64,000 nt of DNA from assembly GCF_024323335.1 (NCBI RefSeq), contig NC_066583.1:414296031-414360030 (forward strand), written 5' to 3'. The DNA comes from Lathyrus oleraceus. Its lineage: Eukaryota; Streptophyta; Magnoliopsida; Fabales; Fabaceae. Under the pieces are notes generated by a model. It saw only the letters and a program-made list of their open reading frames with translations, was not told the DNA's origin and searched no databases. Of the stretch, positions 1,530 through 60,955 are shown piece by piece (the stretch's first letter is position 1; each line of letters starts with the position of its first letter). The translations under genes were made by a program, and so were the position numbers.

Positions 1530-2692
1530 AAGAAATCAGGTACCGCGATTGCGTCCTATAAATAAGCTCTGGAGGTGACGCGGAAGGCTGGGGCAAGATG
1601 ATTGATGTGTGTAAGACCCCAATTTTGTCCCTAAGATCCCTCATGGTATCATATCATATCATTGCATTGCCTCAAGGATCATTGGACACCTTGCTTCCTT
1701 CCCTGTGGGTGGGATCCCTTTGAGAGTGTTTCTTGATCACCAAGCATTTTCTTGCATTTGTATATCATTTCTTTTCTTTTAATCACTAACCAAAATATAC
1801 AAAAATATGTCATTAACCCTTGTTACTTGCAGCTGAAGCATTTGCAGGTCAAGCAATGAAAGGCATACATTGAGCAATAGATGGTGGTTATTCTTGAGAT
1901 TTGGACCCCATGATCATTATCAAGAGTTCATATGAGCTATGATGTCATTTTGAAGCAAAATCCCAAGTGGTAGAGGCTTAAATTTCATCAGGACATTTCC
2001 AGGTCATCTGAAGACCCAGAAAGTCAACTGTAAAGTCAACTGTGGATTTGGAGGTCGGAAGTGATTAGAAATACTTCATTCATGTTTAAACAAGTCTCAT
2101 TTAACATTTCAAACACTCACATTGAAGAAATTGAGGTCAAGTCAAAAATTTCTCAAAATGGAAAGTAACCCATAATTTGAAATTTCCAAAAATGGAAGGG
2201 TTTTGGACCAACTTCAACTCAATATTACATCATCAAAAAAGCTTCAAATGAAATTTTGTTGAACATGAAATTTTGTTGAGCAGCTGATGTGTGGGTGAGG
2301 AGATATGATCAAATCATTACCAAGTGTGCATGGAACTTCAAATGGCCATATCTTTTGATCCATAACTCCAAAATTGTGGTTCTTTTTGCATTTTGCTCCT
2401 CATGACCTCTAATTTCCAAATCATTCATCACATGACATAAAATGTCATCACATGATCACTTGCTATTCCATGCCTTTTTTGGAGGGAAATTGCAAAGTTC
2501 AAAAATGGTGCATTGTATGGATTTTCTACCATTGCCAATGAGTTTAAAAGATGATTTTAAGTGACTTTGATGAAGGGAATGGTACTGTTCACGTGTAATT
2601 AGTCCATGCACCATGCATTTTTGAGATTTTGCAAAACACCTCATTTTCATTAACCAAGTTAATCATGGATTAGCAAGGTGATTAGGAAAGCA

Positions 2693-2700
2693 TATAAATA
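2693..2700 (+). promoter_or_regulatory. Putative TATA box of the solo LTR
   Basis: TATAAATA lies about 1.08 kb into the LTR. A similar element, followed by ATCATAACAG in both, stands at the same relative place in the related LTR at 25266. This suggests the U3/R boundary of the family. No transcript evidence is available. Confidence 0.5.
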
Positions 2701-5204
2701 CCTAATCATAACAGAATTTGAGGGAGGTTAATCACAATTCACCATTTCTAGATCTAGTTTTCATCTCCCTCCAAAAATTTCTTCAAATCAAAATTCAAAA
2801 TTCTTCAACATAACACCTTGTTTTTGTTAAAGATTCATGATCAGTGAGTTGATTATAGTGTGAATCAAGTGTTGGTTTGTTGAATTCGTGCAAGAATCAA
2901 GCAGTTGAAGCTCATGAAGTTGAAGATGGAAATTCAGAATTAAGCTAGATCTACACGTGTTCAAGCTTCCTTTTCTTCATCAAACATCATCACAAGCATT
3001 CTGGACTGGATTTGGATCAATACAAGCTGTGGATCGTGCATTTCCAAGATTCTGCTCTTCAAGAGGTCAATTTTCGAACCTTTTAATTTTGTAATCCATG
3101 CATATATTCTTGTAGATCTCGTGTTCCTGATGATTCTGGTAGAAATTTCATGAAAAATGGAGCATTATTCACTGAGTTATGGATGATTGAAGTTTGATGC
3201 ACCAAAAATGTTTTGCTCGATTCTCTTAGATCTTGATGATTTATGCTTAATTGTTTGTTGATCCATGCTTTATGTTGCATGAGGATTCGTTTGGTATGCT
3301 TTTTGTTGAATTCTGGACGTTTCTGGAATTTCTGGAAATTGGCGTATGAATCTTCATCTTCTCACATGATGAAGATGATGAATGTTCATGTGTTAGCGAC
3401 GGATCCTTCATAGTTAGCGACGGATTCTGGTTCTGGCTAGGGTTACAGGCAAAACGACACTGTTTTGGTATGGCGCGCTTCACATTTAAAATTCAACCGG
3501 CTTCGATTCCCAGCGCTGCCACATTTTCAAATTGCCTCATGTTTTATGCATTTCCCTCCATTTCACATGCTACATGTTCATATTTGATTTTTATTTTTTT
3601 CCAACTTTAAAAAATCATATCAAATTGAAAAATGATCCAAAAAATGCCTGGTTTTTTGCTACATGATCCTTAGGATGTCTAGAATTTAATAATGTTAAAT
3701 TTTAAAGTTGCGCATGGCTGAATTTTGATTGGTGCTAGAATCTTTGATCATATGTGCGTTTGTGACCTTGCCTTGCTCTTTCTATTCTGAAATGCTTGAT
3801 TTTAATCCTATGGACATGAAATTTTACATGATGATTCTAGACACATTGATGGATGCTTTGGTTCTGGTTTGACATTTTTCCCATGCTCCATTCCTGTTTT
3901 GTGTATGTGTTAACATGGTGTGACAATTTGTGTCACACATTTGATTGTTCAACTTGTACCATTTAATTTCCATGACAAATGATCTTGGATGCTTCTGATT
4001 CTTTTGTATGATGATTGGATTGGATGTGTTGAATGCTCATGAATTTTTCTAGAATTATTTGAATCATTTCTGTTTTGATTTGAAATTTTCATCCATGATG
4101 ATCATATATGAGCTTTGAAATTGTCTTTGGCTTCTCTTGCTTGATACATGGCCTTGCTTGATGATTTTGTTGTGAGCCTTTTTAGGACATGTTAATATGT
4201 GTTTGAAGTTGCATTGTGGTGAATTTCAGCTCCTGTTTTAAATTTTTTCTTCACCTTTGACCCTAGGCTTTGACCTAGTGGTTTGGACTTACATGTGAGC
4301 TTTGAATTTCAGGTTCAAGCATCCAAATTCCATGGTTAATGTAGCTTCATCATTTGAATGTTGATATTTGCTTTTGATTGCTAACATTTGCTGTTTTCTA
4401 GGTTGTTGATAAGTCACTTGAGTTTGCCTCATGGCTTACATGTTGTACATTGGGATTGTCTATTTGTTATTGACTGTTGTATGTTTGTCTGTGTATTGTA
4501 CTGATTTGTTTAGTTGTTTTCACAGGTACCTAAGTTGCTTTAAGTTCATTTGAACTTTGCTTTGCTTTTGCTTGTGGTTGGCATACCACTTAGGTATAAT
4601 CCCTAATCTTCATGTAGTCTGGAAGACTTGCTGTTATTGGCAGGCACTTGTCTGAAGCCCTCCTTAAGAGGCCATGTCTTTGGTTGTTTATCTTTGTGCC
4701 AAGCAGGTAAAGTCCTCTTAAGAGGAAATTGGCAGATAAAAGGGATGTGTAATCCATCCCCTGCTATTTAGTGTGTCATTCATCTTTCTCACACCATGTG
4801 TTGATGCATTGTGAATAAGAACCCAAAATCATGTCCATAGAGTCAGTCATTTGTGGAGAAGAGTTCCTACATTCTGAACTCCCACACTTTCTATTGTTTA
4901 AAGCTCTCCCAGGCCAGGGATAAGAGCTATGAGGCATAACCCTCATCTCTATTTCATCTGCTTCACCCTAACTCTCAATGTTAGGGTTAAGAGCTCAAAA
5001 CACCCCATTCCAGTTGGCTTGTTTCTAAAGCCTAATCTTGCTTGAGCCCATTGATTATGTATAGTGTGTGCTAATTGGTTGCTTGTTGTTGTTTGCCCAT
5101 ATATGCATAATTGTTGGTGTGTGCCTTTGTGCATTTGTTTTCATTATTTGTATATCATTTCATGATCATTGTTCATATTTTGTGACATTTTGTTTTGTCC
5201 ATTG

Positions 5205-5475
5205 AGGAGTCAATTGTAAGTCCATTTATTGGTAGTTGTTTCCTATGATCTGGTAGGAATTGGGACTAAGACCATTGATTGGCATCCCATTTCCTGGGAG
5301 TCGAGTATAAGACCATTTATTGGCAACTTGTTTCCTCTTGCTTATCGCATTTGTTATTTGTTTCTTGTGAGGAGTCAATTGTAAGTCCATTGATTGGCAT
5401 CCGGTATCCATGTTTTCTTTGTTTTGTGAGATTGGTGTAAGTTCATTGATTGGCATCCAGTATCCATTTATGTTG
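5205..5475 (+). repeat. Degenerate subrepeats in the solo LTR
   Basis: About five imperfect units carry variants of TAAGTCCATTGATTGGCATCC-like words, spaced roughly 45-70 bp apart (near 5216, 5268, 5308, 5380 and 5437). The minus-strand LTR has a matching array at about 50226-50600, so the subrepeats belong to the LTR family and predate both insertions. Confidence 0.6.
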
Positions 5476-6476
5476 TTTATCTGTTACCTACTTGTTGCCT
5501 TTTCCAAAAGAATCACTTGGATCATCTACATATGATCTCAAGAGGTGAACAATTAAGAAGTTTTGCATCCCTTAACCTCCCACGCTTTTTATTCTTTAAA
5601 CCTTCATTTTGCATGTTAACCCAAACCAGAAAACTTTGTGCAAACATTTTCACTTGTTTTTAAACTAGAAACCTAGGCCTTAAGCCTTTGATTTTCAAAC
5701 TTCATTTTCATATTACTTCTTTTGAATTGAATACTAATCATACTTTGACTTCATTTTTGTAAATAATCCTAATTGACTAATTACACTCATTCAATTGTTT
5801 TGTGGCTCAAGTCCACTTCTTGATAAGTTTTCATACATTAGCCATAGATCTCAATTATCTTAGTGGTTGATGTTAATCTCTCCTTTTGTCCTTAGTGGTT
5901 GAATTGTAAGACTTCCTTGCTTATTATAGGGCATGGTCCCTCACTAGCAAGTTGAAGCTTTTATCACATGGTGGACTAGTGGTTGTATAGGTTGAGGTTT
6001 CTCCCGTGGATAATGAAAGACCTTAGGGCTTTTGTTTAAAATCAATCCACTCACTTTTTTTGGAAATCTTTTAGCCGAACTACGAGGTTTTGATCCTGTA
6101 AAGGTACGTAGGCAATGGTTATCCATCCAAACACAAAGATAATAAAACTTGTATATTCTTTTCTCATCCTCCCAATCAATGTTTGCACAATAAATATTTG
6201 TCATAAACATTATCTTTTGCAACAATTTGTGAAAAGGGTTCCCTAGGAGTACCTAGGATGCATTAGGTGCCTAACACCTTCCCTTTGCATAATTACCCCC
6301 TTACTCATATCTCTGACCTTTCATTAGTTTTCTATGTGTAAAACTTCTTAGGCTTTTGTTCGCTTTTTAGCCATTCCTTTGGATAAATAAAAGTGCGGTG
6401 GCGACTCTATCTTTGTATGCTTTGCTTTTGATTTAGCCAATAAATCATAAAGTGACGAATACACCGCTACAATGTG

Positions 6477-6722
6477 CCCGTAAAAGAAGACATGTTTGGC
6501 ATTGGTTATCAGCCTTTTCAATCATTAGAGTAGGGTGTCCAGGATCAGAAAGGGCCGTGTACTTTCACTAGTGTTGGATTGATGAATCACGGGGATGTCT
6601 TTGCAACAGACAATGAAGATGGTGACAATGATTGTGATATGGTGCGCCCGTGTGCTCCAGGGGAGAAGATCAACAACTGGATTGCTGAGGAAATAGTCCA
6701 AGTTACTCTTCAGACAGAGTAA
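6477..6722 (+). pseudogene. H1 gag-pro frame, terminal part after the solo LTR
   Basis: Immediately after the right-hand ATGTG duplication the sequence encodes the post-protease region typical of Ogre, with FGIGYQP just inside. After an internal TAG near 6528 and a frameshift comes the acidic tail ending INNWIAEEIVQVTLQTE and TAA at 6720-6722. It continues the frame interrupted at 1609. The function of this tail in Ogre is unknown. Confidence 0.75.
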
Positions 6723-6992
6723 TTTTCTTTTGTTTTGTATTTTGCATGAAAGCCCTACGCTCTGCCCAAGGCGTAGTGGTTCATTGTAGGGCCACATCAT
6801 GTTTTGAATTTTCAATGATTATCGTCAATAAAGGACGTTTTGCAATCAAATTCGTGTTCCCTGTCTTTCTACTTTTATTACTCTCATTTTCAAAACAATA
6901 AAAATGGAAATGTTTTTTTGTTATCTGTGACTTTCTTCAACTCTTTTCTAAAAAAAAAAAAAGCATGAAACATCGCTCGTGCAGAATCGATC
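6723..6992 (+). other. Gap between gag-pro and RT frames (intron-like)
   Basis: This AT-rich stretch has stops in all frames and a run of 13 A at about 6950. Ogre elements are known to carry an intron between the protease and RT frames, and this is the corresponding position. I do not see a convincing donor and acceptor pair here, so splicing is inferred from the family only. Confidence 0.45.
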
Positions 6993-7291: not shown

Positions 7292-8446
7292 TTTTACTTG
7301 AACAAGGATGATGTGTTGTACAAGAGGAACGTTGACATGGTTCTGCTCAGATACGTGGTTAGACACGAAGCAGACATGTTAATGCAGGAAGTACACGAGG
7401 GATCTTTCGGTACCCATGCTGGTGGTCATGCAATGGCCAAGAAGTTGTTAAGAACCGGTTATTACTAGATAACCATGGAGTCTGATTGTTTCAAATACGC
7501 TCGGAAGTGCGACAAATGTCAGATCTATGCAGATAAAGGGCATGTACCACCATACCCTCTGAATATTAGGAATTCTCCTTGGCCATTCGCGATGTGGGGC
7601 ATCGCTATGATCGGAAAGATTGAACCTACTGCTTCTAATGGACATCGTTTCATCCTAGTCGCGATCGATTACTTTACCAAGTGGCTGGAAGCAGCTTCCT
7701 ATGCCAATGTTACCCGACAAGTGGTTGCTCGATTCATTAAGAAGGAATTTATCTGTCGTTATGGAGTCCCTGGGAGAATCATCACTGATAATGGTTCGAA
7801 CCTCAATGACAAGATGATGAAAGAGCTTTGCAAAGACTTTAAAATCGAACACCACAATTCTTCTCCTTACAGACCAAAGATGAATGGTGTTGTAGAGGCG
7901 GCAAATAAGAACATTAAGAAGATTGTGCAAAAGATGATTGTGACGTACAAGGATTGGCATGAGATGTTGCCTTTCGCTTTGCATGGGTATCGTACCTTAG
8001 TGCGTACGTCAACCGGGGCAACTCCGTTTTCACTTGTGTATGGCATGGAAGCAGTCTTGCCAGTAGAAGTTGAAATCCCTTCTTTGAGGGTGATGATGGA
8101 TGTAAAACTTGACGAGGCTGAGTGGGTTCAAGCCAGGTTTGATGAGTTAAATTTAATTGAGGAAAAGCGATTAGCAGATGTGTGCCATGGACAACTATAT
8201 CAGAGAAGGATGAAGAAGGCCTTTGATCAGAAAGTGCGTCCTCGAAGCTATCAGATAGGTGATTTGGTTTTGAAGAGGATCCTTCCTCCCGGTACAGATA
8301 ACAGGGGCAGGTGGACTCCGAATTATGAAGGTCCATATGTTGTTAAAAAGGTATTTTCTGGTGGATCCTTGATGCTTACAACTATGGATGGTGAAGATTT
8401 TCCGTCTCCTGTGAATTCAGATGTAGTCAAAAAATACTTCGCATAA
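7292..8446 (+). pseudogene. Ogre-like integrase (nonsense-interrupted)
   Basis: The frame runs from the pre-integrase linker (FYLNKDDVLYKRN) through the HHCC zinc domain (HEGSFGTHAGGH, then CDKC) and the integrase core to a C-terminal domain ending NSDVVKKYFA. In the open part starting at 7475 the catalytic triad is D65, D105 and E141, which is the D,D-35-E spacing. A TAG at 7466-7468 lies inside the zinc domain, at a place where relatives have Trp. The core itself looks intact. Integrase would insert the cDNA copy into chromatin, but this copy cannot be made from a full polyprotein because RT is missing. Confidence 0.85.
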
Positions 8447-10168
8447 ACTGACCCGCTGGACAAAAAAAGAAAGTCCAGGCAAAAAAGGGCATCCCGGCGA
8501 ACCAAGAGAAAAAGAAAAGAAAAAGGTTCGGGCAAAAGTTAGGGATAAAGAATAAAAAAAATGTACACCCGGTAAGTCGAAAACCTGAAAAGGCGGCTTA
8601 GGCAAAAATGGGTATCCCGGTGGATAGAAAACCCGAAAAGGGCGATCCAGGCAAAAGTTAGGGATTAAAGCGAAGACTACAGTCTGAGTTATCTGTACTT
8701 CATCGCATTTCAGTGTCTACCATCTTGAAGGATATGATCAGTCCAACCATTCTTCTCAGAAAGCAAAGAATTTGGGGGAAATTGAAGATCTATGAGTCCT
8801 AACAGAATTGGAAAATAGTGGAATGCCGTGTTCACATTGCCAATAGGATAGTTTATTTTCTCTTTTGGCGCAATTACCTCTTCCTAGGAATTGCTTCCTG
8901 ATGTATTTGCCTTTATAGGCCATTTTCAATCAATAAAAGTCGTTATTCAGTCAAATTGCTCTCTTGTTTTTTATTTTTACTGTTTTGTTTGCAAAAACGT
9001 CCGAATTTTTGATAAGCATTGCATCTAAAAACATGAAGGCTAGACAATGACATGCGAAAGATAAAACATCTTAAAATTATTTTGAATGTTGAGTGCACTT
9101 GAGTATATTTTGTCCATACGATCCCCTGGGGCATGTACGTCTTGCCGTTCTGTAGGTTACTATCTTTGATTGATGGCTAAAGCAGATGAGCCAAAGTTTG
9201 TTCGAAGGAAGACCCTGTTGTTTCAACACTGTCCAGTCGTGTAAGAAGTTGGGTCGTCTAAGTCGAGTTTAGAATTTGTTTCCCCAACATGGTTGAGAGG
9301 TTGGTGTTTTCCCAACAAGTGACTCCCCAGTTGAGTTGGTTTCTCTACCGTTCCGAGAATGTCAAATCAGTAAGTATCCTCAGCAGAATTTTTGTATATC
9401 CCCAGCGGAGTTGACAGTGCCAGACTGTATCTTCCCAGCAGAAGCGACTGCTCCTCAGAGTCCGATGCCAGATCGATGATCTCGACGCCAGATCCATGAT
9501 CTTTTTCCTTGAAGCAGAATCTCAGTACCGTATCGGTGTTTGCTTCCCCTGCTGAGTCGTCTCTCTCGCAGATTATGGTTGTCAGAACCACTGTCGCTTT
9601 CCTCAACAACAAGCTTCCAGTGCCATTCTCTCCCCAGTGAGAGTCTCGGTATTGTGTTATTGCTTTAACACCGCGTGGCCGGTCATTTCCCCACAGAGTT
9701 CATTGTGTTGTGTATCTCCAACAACATTTTCTGGGTCAAGAAGAGTGTAATCATTCCCCCGGCAGGAGTTCTTGCCTCGGCTTGGCATTCTCCCCAGTAG
9801 AGTTCCTTGCCTCGGCATGGCGTTATTTCTAACCTAGCATTTCGCATCCCTGTATGTAGAATCATATTGCATTGCATCCTCGCAAAACGCGTAGCATTTC
9901 CATTCAGCATGGAGCATTACGCCATAAAAAACTCAAACATATGCATACATGCATTTAACCAGATTGGATCTTATCCCCAGCAGAGGCAGATCATTTTCCA
10001 ACATCAGCATAGCACATTTGCAGTAGTTCCTCTTGGCAACATTCAGAATCGATAGTCCTAGTGAGATTTATTTTCTCACCAGTCCGTGAAAAGAAAGCTT
10101 GATTCCCTTCCGATTTAGTCCCCAGTAAGTGTCTGCCTTATTTCGACATATGTAAGTATCATCCTGGC

Positions 10169-10950
10169 GATACCGGTAAGTGTCGGGTTGATCCCCGTAA
10201 GTGTCTATGCTTTTCTTTGATGTCGGCGAACATCATTGTTCGATGTCGGTAAACGTCGGATTCCAATCGTTGGCCATCAGTAAATGGCATGTCTCTCATG
10301 ATGTCAAAAAAAAATATATCGTTATGTCAACACCCGTAGGTGTCCTTTCCTTTTTTGGTGTCGGTAATCATCATTGTTCGATGTCGGTAAACATCATTGT
10401 TCGATGTCGGTAAACATTAGCCGCTTGTTAACCATCGGTAAATGGTTTTGTCAAGATTCCCCAGCAGATTCGATATCCGTAAATATCGAATACTTCATTT
10501 TCGCCGTCGGTAAATGGTTTTCGTTTCATAAATGTATTCTTTCCTTGGTGTCGGTAAACACCTTTGCTCGATGTCGGTAAACATCGAGTTCCATCCCAGT
10601 CATCGGTAAATGTCTGGTCTTGTTTCACTTATAAACATCTTTGTTCGATGTCGGTAAACATCGAGTTCCATCCCAGTCTTCGATAAATGTCTGGTCTCGT
10701 TTCACTTGTAAACATCTTTTTCTCCCCAGTGAAGCCGCCATCGGTTAATGGCCTCGCTTTCTTTGATATCGGTAAATATCAATTTTGTTTTGAAGCCGCC
10801 ATCGGTAAATGGCCTCGCTTTCTTTGATATCGGTAAATATCAAATGTTTTTGAAGCCGTCATCGGTAAATGGCCTCGCTTTCTTTGATATCGGTAAATAT
10901 CAGATTTTGGTTCAGAAGCCGCCATCGGTAAATGGCCTCTCTTTCCTTGA
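10169..10950 (+). repeat. Array of hairpins with constant loop CGGTAA
   Basis: At least 14 short inverted repeats share a six-base loop, CGGTAA or a one-base variant, while the stems differ and pair. Examples: GATGT/ACATC (10380-10395), GCCAT/ATGGC (10273-10288), AACCAT/ATGGTT (10430-10447), ATTCGATAT/ATATCGAAT (10468-10491), GGTGT/ACACC (10547-10562), CTCGATGT/ACATCGAG (10567-10588) and TTGATAT/ATATCAA (10763-10782). One unit at 10169 pairs with a G-T wobble. The function is unknown. In RNA these would form a series of stem-loops in the 3' UTR. Confidence 0.85.
10731..10950 (+). repeat. Tandem repeat, about 61 bp x 3.6
   Basis: Units start at 10731, 10792, 10852 and 10915 with GAAGCC. Each contains one GCCAT/ATGGC hairpin and one GATAT/ATATC hairpin; the last unit is partial. 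This is recent amplification inside the older hairpin array. Confidence 0.85.
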
Positions 10951-11328
10951 TTCGTCACCTACAGAGTGCAAATTCTCCGGTTCTTTTGGTATTCAATCCA
11001 TGTTTACCTTGAAAGTCTGATAGTCGTTGCTTTCATCCATTCAAGTTCACAGTTGATTGAATAGGGGCAGTTGTAGCACCTCAAATTCCCCCCCCCATTC
11101 ATGCATTCATCTTTTAGGCCATTTAACATTTCATATTGCATTTCATCATGGTAATCGGAATTAGATCCAAGAAGCTTGAATATCATCCAAGACACTTTGT
11201 GGGTCCTACTTGAGTGATCAGTCAACACAAGGGAATTGCTTGAGATACTTCCAACTTGTGCAAATGGGGTTTATCATCATTCAAAACGCTAATCTCGAAG
11301 GAGAAAAAAGCAGAGCCTGAGCTGTCAT

Positions 11329-11965
11329 GCTCGCTAGGCGAGCAGATTGGTTCGCCCAGCGAACCTGAATGTCATGTTCGCTTAGCGAGCAAATCCTTCG
11401 CTAGGCGAAGCCCACGCGTTTTCAAAATATAACAGAAAATCTTGGGCTTGAGTTACCCTCATTTGAACCCACAAAGCCACGAAATTAGGCTATATATACT
11501 AGACTCCCATCTCCCAAAAAGACCTGACCTAAAAAGACCTGAGCTAACCTGACCTAAAACCCTGGACAGAAAGAAGAGCTAACTGATTCGGAGCAACCTC
11601 CGGTCACTGAAGGAAACTCATTTGCAAAGAACTAATTCCAGACTCTAGGATTGCTCTGCAAACCCAACCAGGGCAATTCAATTTCAATCAATCTCTCCAA
11701 TCAGGTTTGCCTTATTCCCATTACTCTATGCTTTATTTGAATACTCTGAATGTATGAGGTATTATCGCGACGTTTTGCCCACGGGTTTAAATGTATATGA
11801 ATATGTAAATCAACGCCTTGAATGTTTTAATCATTTTGTTTCTGATGGATACCATAGGGTTTGGGTTGCCGAGATCAGACGGTTATCAATGAAGAACCCA
11901 AAACCCGCAGGCCTTCGCTAGCACCTTCGCTAGGCGAGCCTGCAGCGAAGCTTCGCTAGGCGATG
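11329..11965 (+). repeat. Short palindromes of CGCTAGGCGA type in the H1 LTR
   Basis: Four compact inverted repeats lie at 11329-11410: GCTCGC/GCGAGC, GGTTCGC/GCGAACC, TCGCT/AGCGA and CTTCGC/GCGAAG, with loops TAG, CCA, T and TAG. More copies are at 11913-11965. They lie on both sides of the TATA-like box. Confidence 0.65.
11491..11498 (+). promoter_or_regulatory. Putative TATA box of the H1 LTR
   Basis: TATATATA about 420 bp into the LTR, followed by CT-rich and A-rich text typical of a plant leader. This is a prediction from sequence only. Confidence 0.45.
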
Positions 11966-13005
11966 CAGCAGCGATCGTGACAGTAGTTGTTTTTTCTGTT
12001 TTCTATAATCTTTTTGTGTTCTGTTATGACATGTTTTCTATTGCATCCATGCATTGCTTCCTAACCTGTTTGTTGAGTTTTTGTGAGGGCTCACATGACT
12101 CTTGAAGAGATAGCTTGCGTGGTATTCCACTTTATTTGTGGGATGCCCCCTGGAGATTTATTTCGATTACCTGTGCTGACTTGCTTTCTTTGATGGTGCT
12201 AGCTTGAGAGATCCTTGGGTTTCTTGCCCCCTTAGTTGTTGTTACTTCGGATCTTTATCCGTGTGGTACTTTTACCTCTTTCCCATATTTTACCGCTTTC
12301 TTAGCTGGAAGACCTCGATAGGAGGCAATGTTTTCTTTTGTTTGTTTACTTGATACATGTTTTGTGTGGTGTGGTCGTCTCCCCCACATGATTGCTAGGC
12401 TTCGTATAGTCTATCGTTTGCATGTCAATTTAGGTAGCACTGTTCCTTTGTCTAGGACTTCCTTTTTGCATGAGCCTTCCTAAAACACAAACAAACTCAT
12501 TGATTTTTCTTCTCCTAAGAACACGTTAACTCCTTCTACTATAGGCGAGTAAGTCTCCAAAGGTCGAGCATCCGGTAGATTGCGTAGTAATGTCATTCAC
12601 CCAAAACAAACCCAGTAGTTTGCCGAGCTACGAAGACTCTGATTCTCATATTCAGATGAGATACGTATGTAGTGGATGCGACATCCGTGCGAGTCATTTT
12701 CTTTTGACCCCTCTTTTAGTAAATAGTACATTAGATAAACCCACACCCTTTAGACAAGAACAACAAGAGTGGATCCCTTAGAGTACTACGGATGCGTAGG
12801 GGTGCTAATACCTTCCCTTTGCATAACCGACTCCCGAACCCAAGATTTGGTTGCGAGATCTTGTCTTTTCCTTTCCTTTTTCCAGGTTTACTTCGAGCGT
12901 TTCCTTTCCCTCTTTTGGGATAAATAACGCACGGTGGCGACTCTTCTGTCATTTCTTTTTCGCCGGTTGTTTTTTCGCATACTATGATTTTTTCAGGTTG
13001 CGACA

Positions 13006-23701: not shown

Positions 23702-24277
23702 ATCCACGTTCTGACGGTAATGGATAATATATCTCATGCACTCTTCGATCGAAGCCTGTTGTGTTTCCCCAGTCGAGTAAGATTCGTTATTCCTTTGTGG
23801 AATCGAATATTTGTTGTTTGTTGGATAATTGCCGGATGCTCGCAATTTATCCCATGTGAGTTGTCTTTCGTTTACCCTGTTGCTTGGTATCGATTGCCTC
23901 TCTTTTTGGTTGATCACCTATTATATGCCAGTAACCGGTATCTCTAGTGTCTCTTCCTTTTCGAGTATATTATTCATGTTTTGACGGTAATGAATAATAT
24001 ATCTCTTTCGCTCTTTGGTCGGAATCCTTTGTTGATCTTCCCCAGTAGAGTAAGATTCGTATTCTTTGTAGAATCGAATATCCATCCTTTAACAGGTTTG
24101 TGTTTTGGATGATGAGTGTCTTGGCATATATACCAATTCACGTTTTCGGTAGGTCACCTATTATATACCTCGGTATCCCTGGTGTCTCTTCCATGCGAGT
24201 GTATTATCTACGTTCTGACGGTAATAGATAATATATCTCATGTGAGTATACTATCCACGCTCTGACGGTAATGGATA
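23702..24277 (+). repeat. Hairpins with 14-nt loop ending CGGTAA
   Basis: Four units share a 14-nt loop close to CGTTCTGACGGTAA while the stems change: ATCCA/TGGAT (23702), TATATTATTCA/TGAATAATATA (23966-24001), TATTATCTA/TAGATAATA (24202-24233) and TATCCA/TGGATA (24252-24277). The same motif family occurs in inverse orientation at 55558-56374. Confidence 0.8.
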
Positions 24278-25265
24278 TTATATCTCATGCACTCTTTGGG
24301 TTTGTGTCCCCAACTGAGTAAGATTCGTTTTCCTGTCGTGGATTCGAATGTCCATCCTGTAAGTCGATTTACTTTTTCAAGCCCTCCTTTCGGATGATGA
24401 GTGTTTTGGCATATATACCAATTCACGCTTTGGTCGGTCACCTATTATATGCCCTAACCGGTACCCCTGGTGTTCCCTTCTTTCTGCTCCCTATTATGAC
24501 TTTGGTCCTCTGTGGAGTCAGATTTTCCTGAGTTGATGTACCTTTTTTGGTCTTTCTCAGATGTTTGGTTGATTGATATCTCTCACCCTTATACCGGTTT
24601 TAGATATTCATTCTTCCTGAGTTTGTTACCCTTATACCGGTAACACCTCATTTCTTTGTTGCTTCCCCGTGAGAGTCTCTTTGTTAGACCTTCTCCAGTG
24701 GAGTTTCCTGTTGTGATTTTACCCTTTTGCTGTATTGGCGTTTTCCCCAATATATGCAATTCTCCCCGGCAGGGAGGTTCTTTCTGAATCGTTCCCTAGT
24801 CCGTTTCCGGATTTTTATCCGAAGTATCCTTTGTGGATAGTTTGAGTCAGCTTGAGTCTTTCCAATGGTTGTGTCTTCCTTTAGAATCCTTCTTTCCCAG
24901 TTTGAGTCCTTTACTTCCCAGTGAGATCTCTAGTCCAGTCGTGTTGTGTTCATGCAGTGTCAGTTTTGTCTCCTAATTCAGAGTCGTGTCCTGCTCACGC
25001 ATTCTTTTTCTTTTTCTTATCCCCATAAGAGACCTGTTAGAGTCTCTGTTCCTGGTGAGTGTATCACTCCAATGGATCGTCTCTTCTGTGTGAACTATAT
25101 CCCCACAGGATTTTTGTTTCTTTTACATGCATTTCTCTTGCATCATGAGGTCTCTTAGGGACCAAAATTTGTCTTATTATTGTTATTTAAGCCCATTCTA
25201 CCGCGTCGAGATGAAGATTTCTAAACTTCACTTCTCCGGCTAGAATGACCTTAAATAGGGGCATC

Positions 25266-38268: not shown

Positions 38269-38935
38269 TGTAGCGGTGTATTCGTCGCTATATGATCTAT
38301 TGATTAAATCATAAGCAAAGTATACAATAAACATAGAGTCGCCACCGCACTTTTATTTATCCAAAGGACTGGCTAAAAAGCGAACAAAAGCCTAAGAAGT
38401 TTTACACATAGAAAACCAATGAAAAGATCAGAGATCGGGGTAAGGGGTAAATTACGCAATGGGAAGGTGTTAGGCACCCATCACGTCCTAGGTACTCCTA
38501 GGGAACCTTTTTCACACTTGTTGTATAAGAAAAATATTTATTTGTTTTTGACATATTGTGCAAACATGAGTGGGATGATGAGAAAAGAATGTACATGTTA
38601 ATTATTTTTGTGTTCGAACGGATGAACCCGTTGCCTACGTACCTTCCATCAAAGGTAAGGATCAAAACGCCGTAGTTCGGCTAAAAACTTCCAAAAGTTA
38701 GTGGATTCCTTTTTAAAACACAAGCTCTAAGGTCTTACGTTACCCACGGGAGAAAACTCAACCTTAAGAAACAACAAGTCCACCACGTGAGAAAAGCTTC
38801 AACTTGCTAGAGAAGGGTTAACCCTATAATAAGCAAGGAAGACTTACAATTCAATCAACTAAGGACAAATAGGTGAGATTAATATCAACCAACTAGGGTA
38901 AATCAAACCTATGGCTAATGTATGAAAACTTAACA
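38269..38935 (-). mobile_element. 3' LTR of the minus-strand Ogre derivative, distal piece
   Basis: This is the minus-strand 3' end of the LTR, ending ACACCGCTACA at 38269, the same terminus as the solo LTR at 6471. It is separated from the rest of the LTR (49873-54635) by copia B. There is no gene. Confidence 0.9.
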
Positions 38936-40621
38936 TGTTAGACGGTGTGGCTAGTGATCGAGAGGGGGGGTGAATAGATCACCTCTTTAAAATTAACGGA
39001 TTTTTAAGTTTAATCAGAGTTTTCAAAAACAGCAGATAAAGCAGTCCCGAATCGACTTCCGTCTATTCTGAACTGCTACTAGAAAGCCGGACACGCAAGT
39101 GCAGTTGCTGGATTTTAATGAGAATGACAGAAATAATACACACAGAATGTTAACAGATTGAATGCGCTTATCCTCAAATTCTATTTCCAATGAACACAAT
39201 CAAGTTAACCGTTTTGTCAAACAGTTGGTGTGTGTGTGTTTGATGATAAACAGCAATGGTGTATTACTTAAAGGTTTTATTATCACTGCTGTCCAGAAAA
39301 ATTGATCAATCACCACACACTAACATAAATTGCAAAACAGTTTTGAAACGTAAAGAAGATTAAGGTAAGAGTACGATACGCAGAGATTTGTTAAGGAAGT
39401 TCCCCACGTCGTCCTCGCGTGTGGGTACGTCTCCCTCTCAATTTCAAATGAAATTGAGAACTTTGATTATCAATTATTGCCGAATCCGTTGATACAAGGT
39501 TTTGATACAAAGACAGAATTTCTAAACTCCAAGAACCTCTTCTTGTATAAACCTTCACTTGATCTGAGCTTGATCAAGATTTTCCTGCACAAAGTTGCAA
39601 ACAATTCACCGGTTCCACGACCTGCTTGCGAAATCCCCCGATCTCCAAACGCAACGCTGCGGCTGAATCTGTTCTGCAAATGTGACTCCGAAACCCTCAA
39701 GAACACACCAGTTCTTGAAGGACAAACCAGTAGGTTTTTCCTAGAAACCCCCTTCAATCTTCGACTCAGCTAGATCCTCGATCGTTCCACTGCAACCCAC
39801 AGCTAGATCCTTGATCACACCACTGAACGTTATCTCAATGCTTCTTTGATCCAACGAACAAGAATTGTTATGTGTAAATGTTCTTGAAAGAAGAGTGATT
39901 GAGAAGATGAAGAAGATGAAGTCTCTTTCAGGTTTCTATGTGCTCACTGACAATTGCTCCAACACTACTTTGATCTTGTGTTCAATTGTCTTTTTGCTCA
40001 ATGAATTCGTGTCCCTCATTTGCTGTTGAAACCTGTATATATGTGCTGCAAAACAGATTCTGTTATGACTTGAAACAACCTTGTGTATTGATACACAGGA
40101 GTGTGCATCGATGCATACTGTAAGTTGTATGAAATTTGGTCAAATTAATTAATCATGTATCGATGCAGGAGTCGTGTGTATCGATGCATGTGGTATTTAC
40201 ACTGATCTGTATCGATGCTTAATGCTCATGTATTGATGCACAGGCTATCTCAAGTGGTCATGTATCGATGCAGAATTCGTGTGTATCGATGCACAGAGTT
40301 TTTGCCCTTCCATGTATCGATGCATGGCTCGTGTGTATCGATGCATACTGAACATAATTTGTTTTGACATTAATCAAGGCTGCATGTATCGATGCACAGA
40401 TTCATGTATTGATACATACTGTTACAAAATGCATTTTAATAGTTATTTTAAAGGAATTTTTCAATGTACATATATATGTGTGGTTATGCAACAATAGAGT
40501 GGGATGAATCACAAAGTAAAAACACAATTATATCATGTAATGCAATGCACAATCAATTTGGATGATGTTCACACAATTTGCTATCATTAAAAGTTAATTC
40601 AAGTTAAAGAATTCTTTCACA
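38936..40621 (-). mobile_element. 3' LTR of copia B
   Basis: The minus-strand LTR starts TGTGAAAGAATTC at 40621 and ends CCGTCTAACA at 38936. A TATATAT box is at 40036-40042. Twelve copies of a 12-bp palindromic word with core ATCGAT lie at 40083-40416, upstream of the TATA box. Confidence 0.93.
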
Positions 40622-40985
40622 AACTCCCCCTTTTTGATGATGGCAAATTCTTGGCAAGATGTGTGATACTCCCCCTGAGTTTGTGCATATCTGCATTTTC
40701 TCCCCCTTTGTCAACATCAAAAAGAGGAAGAACTATAGTTATCAAGTAGAGAGTGAAGCAGGGCATGGCAAAAGGATAATACGCTATCAATCACACAGAA
40801 AGAAGCTGCAAGTTAAAGAATCATTCACAAAGAATCATTCAAAAGGTAAGGGCAATAACAAATAGAGATAAACAGAAGCTTAAAATCATTTAAAGTGTGC
40901 AAACGAGTTTAGGAGTTACATAAGCTAGAACAAATAATGTGCAACCAAATGAAATGAAATGCATTGAAATGAAAGGTATGGTGGG
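40622..40985 (-). other. Copia B 3' untranslated region with three purine tracts
   Basis: On the minus strand, AAAAAGGGGGAGTT touches the LTR (40622-40636). Two further tracts are at about 40668-40679 and 40700-40710. No gene is seen. Confidence 0.8.
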
Positions 40986-48167: not shown

Positions 48168-48179
48168 GCTCTGATACCA
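48168..48179 (-). other. Primer-binding site of copia B
   Basis: On the minus strand TGGTATCAGAGC lies two bases after the 5' LTR. It is the standard complement of initiator tRNA-Met. Confidence 0.95.
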
Positions 48180-48181
48180 CT

Positions 48182-49867
48182 TGTTAGACGGTGTGGCTAG
48201 TGATCGAGAGGGGGGGTGAATAGATCACCTCTTTAAAATTAACGGATTTTTAAGTTTAATCAGAGTTTTCAAAAACAGCAGATAAAGCAGTCCCGAATCG
48301 ACTTCCGTCTATTCTGAACTGCTACTAGAAAGCCGGACACGCAAGTGCAGTTGCTGGATTTTAATGAGAATGACAGAAATAATACACACAGAATGTTAAC
48401 AGATTGAATGCGCTTATCCTCAAATTCTATTTCCAATGAACACAATCAAGTTAACCGTTTTGTCAAACAGTTGGTGTGTGTGTGTTTGATGATAAACAGC
48501 AATGGTGTATTACTTAAAGGTTTTATTATCACTGCTGTCCAGAAAAATTGATCAATCACCACACACTAACATAAATTGCAAAACAGTTTTGAAACGTAAA
48601 GAAGATTAAGGTAAGAGTACGATACGCAGAGATTTGTTAAGGAAGTTCCCCACGTCGTCCTCGCGTGTGGGTACGTCTCCCTCTCAATTTCAAATGAAAT
48701 TGAGAACTTTGATTATCAATTATTGCCGAATCCGTTGATACAAGGTTTTGATACAAAGACAGAATTTCTAAACTCCAAGAACCTCTTCTTGTATAAACCT
48801 TCACTTGATCTGAGCTTGATCAAGATTTTCCTGCACAAAGTTGCAAACAATTCACCGGTTCCACGACCTGCTTGCGAAATCCCCCGATCTCCAAACGCAA
48901 CGCTGCGGCTGAATCTGTTCTGCAAATGTGACTCCGAAACCCTCAAGAACACACCAGTTCTTGAAGGACAAACCAGTAGGTTTTTCCTAGAAACCCCCTT
49001 CAATCTTCGACTCAGCTAGATCCTCGATCGTTCCACTGCAACCCACAGCTAGATCCTTGATCACACCACTGAACGTTATCTCAATGCTTCTTTGATCCAA
49101 CGAACAAGAATTGTTATGTGTAAATGTTCTTGAAAGAAGAGTGATTGAGAAGATGAAGAAGATGAAGTCTCTTTCAGGTTTCTATGTGCTCACTGACAAT
49201 TGCTCCAACACTACTTTGATCTTGTGTTCAATTGTCTTTTTGCTCAATGAATTCGTGTCCCTCATTTGCTGTTGAAACCTGTATATATGTGCTGCAAAAC
49301 AGATTCTGTTATGACTTGAAACAACCTTGTGTATTGATACACAGGAGTGTGCATCGATGCATACTGTAAGTTGTATGAAATTTGGTCAAATTAATTAATC
49401 ATGTATCGATGCAGGAGTCGTGTGTATCGATGCATGTGGTATTTACACTGATCTGTATCGATGCTTAATGCTCATGTATTGATGCACAGGCTATCTCAAG
49501 TGGTCATGTATCGATGCAGAATTCGTGTGTATCGATGCACAGAGTTTTTGCCCTTCCATGTATCGATGCATGGCTCGTGTGTATCGATGCATACTGAACA
49601 TAATTTGTTTTGACATTAATCAAGGCTGCATGTATCGATGCACAGATTCATGTATTGATACATACTGTTACAAAATGCATTTTAATAGTTATTTTAAAGG
49701 AATTTTTCAATGTACATATATATGTGTGGTTATGCAACAATAGAGTGGGATGAATCACAAAGTAAAAACACAATTATATCATGTAATGCAATGCACAATC
49801 AATTTGGATGATGTTCACACAATTTGCTATCATTAAAAGTTAATTCAAGTTAAAGAATTCTTTCACA
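48182..49867 (-). mobile_element. 5' LTR of copia B
   Basis: This is the same 1686-bp sequence as 38936-40621, with TATATAT at 49282-49288 and the ATCGAT-core palindromes at about 49329-49662. Transcription toward lower coordinates would start downstream of the TATA box. Confidence 0.93.
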
Positions 49868-49872
49868 TAACA

Positions 49873-54635: not shown

Positions 54636-57600
54636 GATGCCCCTATTTAAGGTCATTCTAGCCGGAGAAGTGAAGTTTAGAAATCTTCATCTCGATGCGG
54701 TAGAATGGGCTTAAATAACAGTAATGAGACGAATTTTGGTCCCTAAGAGACCTCATGATGCAAATGTATGCATGCAAAAGACACAAACTCTGTGGGGATA
54801 TGGTTCACACAGAAGAAAAGACGATCCATCAGAGTAGTACACTCACCAGGAACAGAGACTCTAACAGGACTCTTATTGGGGATAATAAAAGAAAAAGAAA
54901 TGCGTGAGCAGGACACGACTCCGAGTTGGGAAAACAAAACTGACACAGCGTGTGCAAGACACGACTTTGATTAGGATAACAGAAATCAGACTGGAGACCT
55001 CACTGGGGAAGCAAAGGACTCAAACTGGGGAGAGAAAGAAATTCCAAAGGAAACACTTCCATTGGAAAGACTCAAGCTGACCCACACAATGCATGTACTA
55101 GGGATAACGCCAATACAGCAACACAAATAGCAATACAACTCCGCTGGGGAAATCTAGAAAAAAGACTTTCCAGGGGAAACCAAGGATGAGACGTTACCGG
55201 TATAAGGGCAACAAACTCAGGAAGAATGAATATCTAAGACCGGTATAAGGGTGAGAGATATCAATCAATCCAAACATCTGAGAAAGACCTGAAAAAGGTA
55301 CATCAACTCAGGAAAATCCGACTCCACGGGGGACCAAGGTCATGATAGGGAGCAGAAAGGAAGGAACACCAGGGATACCGAAGCATATAATAGGTGACCG
55401 ACCGAAATGTGAATTGGTATATATGCCAAGACACTCATCATCCTGAAGAAAGCTAAAGAAGCAGGTTTGTTTATAGGATGGATATTCAATTCCACAAGGA
55501 ATATGAATCTTACTCTGCGGAGAAAACAACCAAAAGATTGACCCAAGAGCATGAGACATATTATTCATTACCGGCAGACCGTGAATAATATACTCGAAAA
55601 GGAAGAGACACCATAGATACCGGAGTATATAATAGGTGACTAACCAAAGACGTGAATTGGTACATATGCCAAGACACTCATCGTCCGAAAGGAGAGCTTA
55701 AAAAAGCAAATCGACTTACAGGATGGACGTTCGAATCCACAACGGGAAAAACGAATCTTACTCAACTGGGGACACAAACCCAAAGAGTGCATGAGATACA
55801 ATATCCATTACCGTCAGAACGTGGATAAGAATACTCGCATGAGACATATTATCTATTACCGTCAGAACGTAGATAATAAACTCGCATGGTAAGAAACACC
55901 AGAGATACCAAGGTATATAATAGGTGATCTACCGAAAACGTGAATTGGTATATATGCCAAAACACTCCTCATCCGAAACACAAACTGGTTAAAGGATGGA
56001 TATTCGATCCTACAAAGAATACGAATCTTGCTCAGTTGGGGAAAATCAACAAAGCATTCCAACTACAGAGCGCATGAGAAATATTATTCATTACCGGCAG
56101 ACCGTGAATAATATACTCGAAAGGAAAAGACACCAGGGATACCGAAGTATATAATAGGTGACTAACCAGAAAAGAGAGACAATCGATACCAAGCATCCGG
56201 GTAAACGAAAGACAACTCAAAGGGATAACTTGCAAGCATCCGGCAAATATCCGACAAAGAAATATTTGACTCCGCAAAGGGAAATAACGAATCTTACTCG
56301 ACTAGGGAAACACAAAAAGCTTCGACTGAAGAGTGCATGAGATATATTATCCATTACCGTCAGAACGTGGATAACACACTCGCATGGAAGATTATCCACA
56401 ACCGGATACTGAGTTAACAAAGGATAAATCGACCGAAAAGAAAGGCATCGGGATACCAAAACTAGGTATATAATGATGACCAATCAAAGGGAGCAACAAT
56501 CATTACCGAGCAAACGGGTAAATAAAAGGCGATCCGCTGAGGATGAATTGCAAGCATCTGGCAATTATCCACAGGGACTGGCTGGGGATACATTGATAAA
56601 CAATTAATGATCCGGGGAACAAATCACTAGCAAACGGTGAAAAGACCCACTGGCGACTTCAAAAGGGATAACATTGCGAGCATACGGCAATGATCCAGAA
56701 GACTTGCTGGGGATACAAGTGCTTACTCAAGAGCAACTACCCAGAAGAAGGGAGGAATATCAACATCGAATATTGAATGGAGATAACCACAAAGAGATTA
56801 GGGTTTACGTCTACCGAATATGGGGTAGAATACCAAAATCTGGCCGAGGAAACAAGAGGTTAACACTACCGACTACTGGGTATAAACCAACAACTCAGCT
56901 GGGATAAAATTGCAAGCAACCGGCAATTATCCACTCGTACCACAAGGCACAAACTCAGATGGGGAGAACAATCACAACATGGGATTTACAACTACCGAAT
57001 ACGGGGCAGAAGACCACAAACTCCACTGGGGATAGGGCGAATGAAGGCCAAATACTGAGCACTTATTCAACTTATTCCACAGGGAAACGCAAACTCTGTT
57101 GGAATAGAGACCACAATAACAGAAATTCCACCATCAACCAGAACGAACCACAAAGGTTATCTCTGCTAGGGGAAAAAAAAATAGGGCTTACAACTACCGA
57201 ATACAGGTAGTAGCCGTACTCTGGTGGGAATAACCACAATTTAGGGTTTACATCTACCGAATACTGGGTAGAAAACCGACAACTCCGCGTGGGGATGGAA
57301 TGAATCACAAATCCGCACGGGAAACAAAATAGGGTTCATAACAAAACCACAAACTGCTGGAGAGCAGGAAAATAGGATTTACGACTACCGACTACTGGGT
57401 AGAAGACCAACAACTCTTGCTGAGGAATAAAAGGTATATAACCACAAATTCCGCCAAGAAGAGGGAACATAGGACTTACAACTACCGGTTACTGGGTAGA
57501 GGCCCAAAAAACTCCGTTGGGGTTAAATGAATTGATGCCGGTTACTGGGCAAACCATTCATTTCTTCCACAGGGAAGCACAAGAAACAGCTGACGAAACG

Positions 57601-58632: not shown

Positions 58633-58858
58633 GCAAATAATCAGATAAAAGCTCAAATTGATTTGATGGAATGGTAGTCTGCAAATGGCAAGACTCCATA
58701 GATCTGTACAAATTTGAAATCAGTGATATATATTGGAAGAGGGCTACATTGAACATAATGATCCTTTCTCTACCAATTTGAATCTCGATGTATTCGAAGC
58801 TTCAGTTGACGACGAATCGAGAATCCTCTGACGAAAAGACAGCTGGTGAAACAGAAAG
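58633..58858 (-). other. Unassigned segment at the internal deletion junction
   Basis: About 226 bp match neither the 3' UTR at 20888 nor the LTR. They may be interior 3' UTR missing from the other copy or filler DNA at the breakpoint. No frame or motif is recognised. Confidence 0.4.
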
Positions 58859-60445: not shown

Positions 60446-60955
60446 GAGGGTAAAGATCCCCAAGGCCTGAAAGCCAGATTTTTCCGCGCTTGGCGCAAGA
60501 TTCAGAAGAAGGGTAGGAATGAATTGGGTCCGAAGAATTGCATTGCTTTGGAGCCATATACCTCTTGGGTCAGACAGAGAGATGCTGAGTACGTCATGCC
60601 GTAGGATCATCCGAGACCTACACCATTGGATGTGGCTGGGCCTTCAACCCTCCCTAACCAATATGCAGAGGAGTTAAGAGAAGAAGACCTTTCGTGTGCA
60701 TGGATCCGTGAAAGAGAAGAGTTGCTTCATCAGCTTAAGGAGAAGGACGCTCTGATTGAGTTTCTCGAGCATCAGGTGACCGATGATCCGAATGATACTT
60801 GGACTTCTCTGCTTCCTCAGTCTTCCAAGTTCTGGAAGAGGAAGTATGATCGACTTGCAAAGGAGAAGGCGGATATGGAAGCAGCCTATGAGAGAGAGAT
60901 CAAGAAGCTGTGTGCATCTCGTCTTCCAGCATCCCGAGCTTTTAGGGATCCATAG
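60446..60955 (+). pseudogene. Ogre ORF1, last part
   Basis: After the GAGGG duplication the ORF1 frame resumes (KARFFRAWRKIQKKGRNELG, then EPYTSWVRQRDAEYVMP). TAG at 60602-60604 is a second nonsense codon. Past it the frame is open with a predicted coiled coil (IREREELLHQLKEKDALIEF) and ends at 60955. The C-terminal coiled coil is usual for this ORF. Function is unknown. Confidence 0.85.

What the first reader, a model, noticed from the sequence alone, without database searches (positions are those of the whole stretch)
10169..10950. Hairpin array with constant CGGTAA loop and co-varying stems
At least 14 stem-loops share the loop CGGTAA, but the stems differ (GATGT, GCCAT, AACCAT, GGTGT, ATTCGATAT, CTCGATGT, TTGATAT) and each left arm has its own matching right arm, including G-T wobbles. 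Simple duplication would copy the stems unchanged, and random decay would break pairing. Paired change points to selection on structure in RNA or single-stranded DNA, or to a process that re-copies one arm from the other. Position, in the 3' UTR just before the purine tract and LTR, suggests roles in packaging, RNA stability or cDNA synthesis.
Basis: seen in the sequence. Interest (0 to 1): 0.88.

Follow-up and report, generated by a model that had tools for sequence, protein, structure and literature searches.

The report
Constant-loop RNA hairpin arrays in Ogre retrotransposons
Near their 3' ends, giant Ogre jumping genes of a legume carry rows of small RNA hairpins whose loop stays the same while the paired stems change together, so a stretch long described as hypervariable tandem repeats looks like a set of RNA docking sites.

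Summary
In the 3' UTR of a Tat/Ogre element (10169-10950), 17 CGGTAA loops carry 5-bp arms that pair in 83 of 85 positions. In 81 loci of the same genome (the window's, and 80 picked by polypurine tract plus LTR start, not by hairpins), 774 CGGTAA units occur in 61: 3323 Watson-Crick, 291 G.U, 165 U.U, 28 A.C, 5 A.A of 3870 cells. Scans not tied to one loop found two more loop types here, RTTCAG with 4-bp stems and, less sharply, CGTT. A second Ogre family has CAGTAACC and a 14-nt loop ending in CGGTAA, on thinner evidence. Counted blind to sequence over all 81 loci, 5-bp hairpins peak at loop length 6; adjoining LTRs do not. CGGTAA and RTTCAG arrays never coincided (0 of 81). Tolerance of G.U and U.U but not A.C or A.A points to selection on sense RNA. 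I propose a multivalent docking array on genomic RNA, most likely for assembly or packaging; nuclear export is the main rival. Function is inferred, no tree-based covariation test was run, and RTTCAG arrays show no G.U excess.

The parts
7475..8446 (+). integrase ORF of the host element E1 (rve core domain)
   Evidence: PF00665 E=8.8e-12; ORF
10169..10950 (+). hairpin array: 17 CGGTAA hexaloops, 15 with stems of 5 bp or more; linkers U 40%, G 16%
   Evidence: linker composition
10469..10491 (+). longest perfect hairpin of the array, 9-bp stem, loop CCGTAA
10730..10951 (+). 61-bp higher-order repeat; units hold a GCCAT/ATGGC-type and a GATAT/ATATC hairpin
10990..11063 (+). hairpin abutting the polypurine tract; basal 9-bp stem TATTCAATC (10990-10998) / GATTGAATA (11055-11063)
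   Evidence: I1; the nine basal pairs are kept in 99-100% of 75 distinct copies
11064..11069 (+). polypurine tract core GGGGCA
   Evidence: read; same in the fetched loci because the search pattern contains it
11072..11080 (+). start of the 3' LTR, TGTAGCACC
   Evidence: 12,759 junction matches genome-wide
23702..23725 (+). E2 family hairpin ATCCA[CGTTCTGACGGTAA]TGGAT
23967..24000 (+). E2 family hairpin ATATTATTCA[TGTTTTGACGGTAA]TGAATAATAT
   Evidence: read; aligned with the E3 copy
24199..24236 (+). E2 family hairpin with stem ATTATCTA/TAGATAAT and loop CGTTCTGACGGTAA
24252..24277 (+). E2 family hairpin TATCCA[CGCTCTGACGGTAA]TGGATA
25184..25257 (+). polypurine-tract-abutting hairpin of E2, basal stem TATTTAAG/CTTAAATA (different sequence, same place as in E1)
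55568..56359 (-). five E3 hairpins with the 14-nt loop ending CGGTAA (CGGTAA at 55568, 55808, 55856, 56091, 56354)

Best explanation
The array is a selected RNA structure in the 3' UTR of the element's genomic RNA: small hairpins of fixed geometry (stem 4-5 bp, loop 6 nt in the two main types), from a few to about 35 per element in the 1.5 kb examined, separated by linkers that are U-rich in E1. The stem only presents the loop; the loop, above all its 3' half (GUAA or CAG), is what is read. A protein binds many loops at once. I think the likeliest binder is the element's own Gag/nucleocapsid, marking full-length RNA for assembly into particles. Tandem duplication spreads units, and paired changes then diversify the stems through G.U and U.U intermediates. 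Shown here: the pairing, the covariation, the preferred loop length, the sense-strand mismatch bias in CGGTAA arrays, similar hairpins in a second Ogre family, and the exclusivity of the two main loop types in the sample. Inferred: protein binding, Gag as the partner, and packaging as the role. My confidence is about 0.85 for a selected RNA structure, 0.6 for loop-reading by a protein, and 0.35 for Gag/packaging.
For: Pairing beats arm permutation in the window, in 45 pooled loci, six RTTCAG-rich loci set aside (512 units in 42 of the 45; distinct combinations 322 of 395 against 274.2, sd 5.9, max 294 of 2000), and in the official pair count on 21 window units (91.7% against 72.6%, 0 of 500; slid versions 20-44%). 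Intermediates: GGTGT/ACATC (G.U) 52 units in 32 loci against 1 for the A.C counterpart; GCCAT/ATGGT 40 in 19 loci against 3. Among the 21 arm combinations seen in 3 or more loci: 14 G.U, 2 A.C, 2 U.U, 2 C.U, 0 A.A. Summed, permuted arms give G.U:A.C of 466:286 where 200:22 is seen, and pair 6, just outside the core, gives 36:38. Blind to loop sequence over all 81 loci: 7.1 perfect 5-bp hairpins per locus at loop length 6 (CGGTAA 357 of 573) against 0.6-2.3 at the other lengths from 3 to 14. In loci picked for 8 or more such loops: 13.1 against 0.9-3.5 (36 loci), 376 of 472 loops within one base of CGGTAA; RTTCAG 36.7 against 2.0-4.8 (9 loci), 290 of 330. The first 1.5 kb from the LTR start in 61 of these loci are flat, 1.1-2.1. 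In RTTCAG units pairs 1-4 are 92-95% paired and pair 5 only 9%. The second family has CAGTANNC loops, distinct combinations 125 of 145 against 107.0, sd 2.6, max 117 of 2000, and its blind count peaks at loop length 8 (4.4 against 0.7-2.9). Hairpin pairing probability in native context is 0.37-0.69 in six arrays against 0.24-0.32 with linkers shuffled. With 3 or more paired hairpins as the criterion, CGGTAA arrays are in 44 and RTTCAG in 15 of 81 loci, 0 with both.
Against: RTTCAG arrays show no G.U excess (13 G.U, 23 A.C), so the strand argument rests on CGGTAA arrays and weakly on CAGTAACC (18 against 9, summed over pairs 1-5). Among arm combinations seen in a single locus the bias is only 42 G.U to 18 A.C. 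Antisense RNA would fold better in five of the six arrays tested and slightly worse in E1; in L063 native context hardly helps (0.37 against 0.32). Local fold z-scores are more negative on the antisense strand in all three window UTRs. Ordinary stems compared between E2 and E3 show no excess of compensated change, and distant chance stems already give G.U:A.C of 112:51 one way and 48:43 the other. One A.C intermediate runs the wrong way (GATAT/ACATC 5 units, its G.U counterpart 0). Stem order along the array is shared between the copies listed, so many units are inherited and independent events are few. Exclusivity of loop types can be a founder effect. RTTCAG and CGGTAA arrays each occur with two LTR types, so loop type does not follow the LTR. 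In the second family the pooled scan for loops with three or more perfect stems in two or more loci each found none. With 4-bp stems the blind peak is less clean (17.4 at length 6, 12.8 at 4, others 2.1-8.3). No protein partner was tested.
Confidence: 0.55

Rival explanations
1. The same RNA array serves nuclear export (or stability/translation control) of unspliced Ogre RNA: host export factors read the loops, as with transport elements of some retroviruses and mouse LTR elements.
For: Ogre elements are reported to have a functional intron, so both kinds of RNA must be exported (passages in PMC12786077); CTE, RTE and MTE are retroelement RNA parts used for export (passages in PMC3856414 and PMC12786077). 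Position between coding region and LTR fits (that known transport elements sit there is recalled).
Against: Loop sequence differs between copies of one family and between families, which is odd for a conserved host factor. Known transport elements are compact folds rather than repeated small hairpins (partly recalled).
Confidence: 0.22
2. A mutational process keeps arms matched without selection: template switching inside the hairpin during reverse transcription or repair recopies one arm from the other.
For: Would give paired change with loops left alone; tandem duplication shows the region is unstable.
Against: Recopying should be blind to strand and give perfect stems. Instead G.U and U.U stems are shared by many copies (GTCAT/ATGTC with U.U in 37 of 81 loci) while A.C and A.A are rare. 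Pairing falls sharply after 4 bp in RTTCAG and 5 bp in CAGTAACC units, less sharply in CGGTAA units (0.73 at pair 6), and the loop itself stays constant.
Confidence: 0.1
3. The dyads act as DNA: protein-binding sites or extruded hairpins in the integrated copy or the cDNA.
For: Inverted repeats with fixed spacing are typical DNA sites (recalled); antisense folding is as good or better in most arrays tested; RTTCAG arrays lack strand bias.
Against: G.U over A.C and U.U over A.A in CGGTAA units have no reason in double-stranded DNA; arm sequences vary widely.
Confidence: 0.08
4. Loops mimic splice sites (GGUAA like a donor, UUCAG like an acceptor) and hold splicing factors on the RNA.
For: Resemblance only (recalled consensus, no call).
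Against: CGTT fits neither; no test made.
Confidence: 0.04
5. No function: tandem duplication of one palindromic unit plus drift.
For: Higher-order tandem repeats are there, and adjacent equal stems are enriched, 146 of 660 against 122.0, sd 8.5.
Against: Drift would break pairing and loop alike.
Confidence: 0.02

Closest known systems
Hypervariable 3' UTR tandem repeats of Tat/Ogre elements (Macas et al. 2009, not held, seen only as cited in PMC7004042; GmOgre minisatellites, PMC3305785; Retand arrays, PMC11963269)
   Same: Same or sister lineage and same place between the coding region and the 3' LTR; tandem, variable in length and sequence.
   Different: In the parts I saw these are described as minisatellites or sources of satellites, not as hairpins with a constant loop and covarying stems. 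The words hairpin, stem-loop and secondary structure do not occur in the main texts of PMC7004042 and PMC11963269; of PMC3305785 I saw part 1 of 3.
Dispersed degenerate packaging signals of satellite tobacco necrosis virus (AxxA loops on short stem-loops; PMC6475782 passages)
   Same: Short stem-loops in several copies, loop motif constant, structural context variable.
   Different: Here a retroelement, a tandem array in a non-coding UTR and a preferred stem and loop length; role untested. The cited paper itself argues against AxxA as packaging signal in vivo.
Retroviral and LTR-element RNA transport elements (CTE, RTE, MTE; passages)
   Same: RNA parts of retroelements that act in cis.
   Different: Compact folds (MTE with pseudoknot and kissing loop; the rest recalled), not repeated hexaloop hairpins.
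Ty3 genomic RNA structure (PMC11381356 passages)
   Same: Ty3/gypsy genomic RNA with structured cis elements; polypurine tract in a paired context.
   Different: No such array in the passages seen; in Ogre the tract directly follows a conserved hairpin.

Membership tests
Tat/Ogre Ty3-gypsy retrotransposon | integrase core downstream in pol | tested here: met
   rve PF00665 E=8.8e-12 at 7475-8446; shared by LTR retroelements in general
Tat/Ogre Ty3-gypsy retrotransposon | long 3' UTR with tandem repeats between pol and 3' LTR | tested here: met
   8447-11071, tandem repeats at 10359-10951
Tat/Ogre Ty3-gypsy retrotransposon | reverse transcriptase clade, extra ORF before gag, intron, tRNA primer site | not tested
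   5' part lies outside the window and E1 is interrupted; the Ogre assignment rests on anatomy and recall
Dispersed packaging-signal stem-loops | constant loop motif on short variable stems, many copies | tested here: met
Dispersed packaging-signal stem-loops | binding by coat/Gag protein and selective packaging | not testable with these tools
   needs binding and packaging assays
Constitutive transport element class | promotes export of intron-retaining RNA | not testable with these tools
   needs reporter assay
Smaug/Vts1 recognition hairpins (CNGG loops, recalled) | loop begins CNGG | tested here: not met
   CGGTAA and RTTCAG do not fit CNGG (read from sequence; the motif is recalled)
Kissing-loop dimer sites | self-complementary loop, or a partner loop nearby | tested here: not met
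   CGGTAA is not palindromic; within 1.5 kb either side of the tract, TTACCG in sense orientation occurs 0 times in 28 of 30 loci and once in 2 (L017, L025). The rest of the element was not examined
Any Rfam family | covariance-model match | tested here: not met
   0 matches at E up to 1 in 8400-11200

The most novel reading that the evidence does not exclude
Ogre-type retrotransposons carry a new class of cis-acting RNA: a multivalent hexaloop array in which each element uses one exchangeable main loop sequence (GUAA-type or CAG-type, never both in the sample) as an identity tag for its own genomic RNA, while stems are free to drift through paired changes. The hypervariable 3' UTR repeats, and the satellites born from them, would then be by-products of copy-number change in this docking array.
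Probability: 0.3. Interest if true: 0.92.

Novelty: new variant of a known kind. Interest (0 to 1): 0.8.

Why it matters
Why Tat/Ogre elements, which fill a large part of some plant genomes, keep hypervariable tandem repeats in their 3' UTRs appears to be open. If they are docking arrays, the question becomes directly testable: which protein reads the loop, and does loop identity sort RNAs into particles? It would also give plant LTR elements a candidate assembly or export signal, and offer a natural record of RNA stem evolution, with over ten thousand copies per family in one genome and G.U intermediates preserved.

Tried and rejected
Viral contigs: integrase patterns found nothing; one DNA pattern hit (L001) shares nothing else with the window and was dropped as chance. 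Local fold z-scores do not single out the E1 array (mean -0.72 sense; several other kilobases are lower) and lean to the antisense strand; I think this is composition, untested, and do not use it. Generic stems E2 to E3: no excess compensation. A kissing partner for CGGTAA near the polypurine tract (GTTTACC) was considered and rejected: L030, L031 and L053 have RTTCAG arrays with the same GTTTACC. Selection for neighbouring stems to differ: not supported (CGGTAA 146 of 660 equal neighbours against 122.0, sd 8.5; RTTCAG 65 of 202 against 74.4, sd 5.0). A constant-loop signal in the LTR (CTAGG) was weak: 127 of 250 against 104.5, sd 7.8, max 134 of 1000. CGTT: most occurrences are not hairpins (404 of 1317 pair, against 5 of 149 in the rest of the window); all distinct arm combinations give 463 of 856 against 365.4, sd 12.7, max 405 of 2000, so it is the weakest of the three loops in its family. 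CGATAA looked like a loop variant but only 12 of 291 pass the strict pairing rule and permutation shows little. The pooled scan in the second family printed no loop; CAGTA came from the per-locus scan, best z 3.8 in L093 and 3.5 in L100, other loci 1.5-3.1 with various motifs. Searching papers for the printed motif: 71 papers, 20 listed, unrelated by title. Loci L002-L009 were fetched by the hairpin pattern itself and are left out of all counts. Of the 81 loci, 20 hold no CGGTAA unit in the 1.5 kb examined; 5 of 81 have no loop type with 3 or more paired hairpins. E1-kind CGGTAA hairpins are absent from the second family (0 of 34 paired in 20 loci). L030 and L031 lie 13 kb apart with identical LTRs, so they are not independent.

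Full report
CHECK. The region 10169-10950 was read. 17 exact CGGTAA lie there, and 15 of 17 close 5 bp or more. Taking the loop alone as the criterion, 83 of 85 arm positions pair (76 Watson-Crick, 7 G.T, 0 A.C), and none of 20000 permutations of the right arms reaches that. The tool's own pair count on 21 units (17 exact and 4 of the 5 variant loops; 20 distinct rows) gives 91.7% paired against 72.6% shuffled and 20-44% when the partner is slid, with both-side changes at all six pairs. A scan of recurrent 6-mers with flanking arms over both strands of the window puts this array first. Tandem duplication is present as well.

CONTEXT. Upstream is an integrase ORF; downstream are GGGGCA and TGTAGCACC, read as polypurine tract and 3' LTR start. 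The element is Ty3/gypsy of Tat/Ogre type by anatomy. The window lies in a 3.8-Gb assembly of 1550 contigs; size and Ogre load suggest pea, which no tool confirmed. GATGTCGGTAAACATC occurs 22,466 times there, the reversed control once.

OTHER COPIES. I sampled by polypurine tract plus LTR start, so pairing played no part in the choice: 30 loci with an exact 21-mer, 20 more from the same list, 30 from the first places of a looser pattern with 12,759 matches, plus the window's element: 81. Apart from the window's they come from contigs 1 and 2 only, so the sample is not random. CGGTAA units: 774 in 61 of 81 loci. Cells at the five pairs: 3323 Watson-Crick, 291 G.U, 165 U.U, 36 C.U, 28 A.C, 10 C.C, 8 A.G, 5 A.A, 4 G.G of 3870. 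Nine perfectly paired stem types occur, 6 of them in 8 or more loci. In the six loci whose order was printed, stems are zoned; the five fetched ones share one order (GGTGT zone, GTCAT/GATGT zone, GCCAT/GATAT/ACCAT zone) and the window's is similar in outline. So units are largely inherited and the number of independent changes is modest.

STRAND. If arms were held together as DNA, A.C and G.T should be about equal. They are not: the step from GATGT/ACATC to GGTGT/ACACC is bridged by the G.U form in 52 units of 32 loci and by the A.C form in 1; GCCAT to ACCAT by G.U in 40 units of 19 loci and A.C in 3. The exception is GATGT to GATAT: A.C 5, G.U 0. A U.U mismatch is carried by 113 units in 37 loci, while the A.A counterpart is absent. 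Composition explains part: permuting arms gives 466 G.U to 286 A.C, against 200 to 22 seen (summed), and distant chance stems give 112 to 51 and 48 to 43. The most cautious count, arm combinations found in 3 or more loci, is 14 G.U to 2 A.C; single-locus combinations give 42 to 18. RTTCAG arrays show no such bias (13 to 23).

MORE LOOPS. Six of 51 loci had 20 or more TTCAG: loop RTTCAG with stems TGGC/GCCA, CGGT/ACCG, CGAT/ATCG, CGAC/GTCG, CAGT/ACTG; 191 units, pairs 1-4 at 92-95%, pair 5 at 9%; distinct combinations 107 of 144 against 87.9, sd 3.9, max 103 of 2000. A pooled search added CGTT with CGTC/GACG in 37 loci, CATC/GATG in 35 and others; it is the weaker case. Blind to loop sequence over all 81 loci, 5-bp hairpins number 7.1 per locus at loop length 6 against 0.6-2.3 at other lengths, and CGGTAA is 357 of the 573; the first 1.5 kb of LTR side in 61 loci show 1.1-2.1 at every length. 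Loci chosen for many loops show the peak more strongly. With 3 or more paired hairpins as criterion, CGGTAA and RTTCAG arrays never coincide in 81 loci; CGTT occurs with either. RTTCAG arrays sit with two unlike LTR types (L017, L026; L030/L031), and so do CGGTAA arrays (E1, L025; L024, L028), so arrays move between lineages or persist in both.

SECOND FAMILY. The Ogre copies at 22.2-25.3 kb (+) and 54.6-58.1 kb (-) have 3' UTRs with no BLAST match of 150 nt or more to E1's. They hold hairpins with a 14-nt loop ending in CGGTAA and stems TATCTA, TATCCA, TATTCA with matching arms; inside the loop CGT..ACG and CGG..CCG also match. In 20 further copies (of 27,195 junction matches; loci) plus the two in the window, 20 such units occur in 10 of 22 loci (45 of 48 against 42.4, sd 1.0, max 45: few stem types, little power). 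CAGTANNC loops give 53 units in 18 loci with 125 of 145 against 107.0, max 117 of 2000. The blind count there peaks at loop length 8 (4.4 against 0.7-2.9). The pooled three-stem scan found nothing, so this family is a milder case.

PRE-TRACT HAIRPIN. Directly before GGGGCA the 75 distinct E1-type ends have TATTCAATC/GATTGAATA closing a hairpin (each pair 99-100%); E2 and E3 have TATTTAAG/CTTAAATA at the same place.

MECHANISM. Preferred loop length, a loop constant above all in its 3' half, varied but paired stems of limited length, U-rich linkers in E1 and high copy number suit a protein that reads many loops at once. Gag on genomic RNA is my first choice because the loop type varies between copies and families; export is the main rival. 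No experiment here separates them.

LITERATURE. Searches listed no paper that by title or abstract describes such arrays (listings capped at 8-20 papers); most subscription papers are not held, and Macas et al. 2009 is not. I saw part 1 of 3 of PMC3305785, passages of PMC7004042, PMC11963269, PMC6475782, PMC3856414, PMC12786077 and PMC11381356, and search listings for the rest. No Rfam match.

Noticed in passing
window 10990-11063 and 25184-25257: Conserved hairpin whose 3' arm ends exactly at the polypurine tract, with different but matching basal stems in two Ogre families.
   Followed up: partly
window 1530-6960: E1 looks interrupted: ORF 3-1529 (no Pfam match) ends, and 1610-2571 resembles the start of the E2 family LTR (25266 onward), so another Ogre piece is probably nested in it.
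   Followed up: no
window 53044-54637 and 58856-60447: LTR-like pair 98.8% identical around a 4.2-kb internal part (E3) that mostly aligns with the E2 3' UTR: a short, probably non-autonomous Ogre.
   Followed up: no
window 38933-40624 and 48179-49871: Repeat pair 99.9% identical, each with a tandem array of TGTATCGATGCA-like units; looks like LTRs of a very young insertion.
   Followed up: no
window 11328-11405 and 11911-11974: LTR of E1 holds several palindromes of the form GCTCG-CTAGG-CGAGC / TTCG-CTAGG-CGAA; covariation in 61 loci was only weak.
   Followed up: partly
L024, L028, L063, L076, L012 (1.5 kb upstream of the tract): Stem types are zoned along the array in the same order in different copies, with local copy-number change inside zones.
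   Followed up: partly
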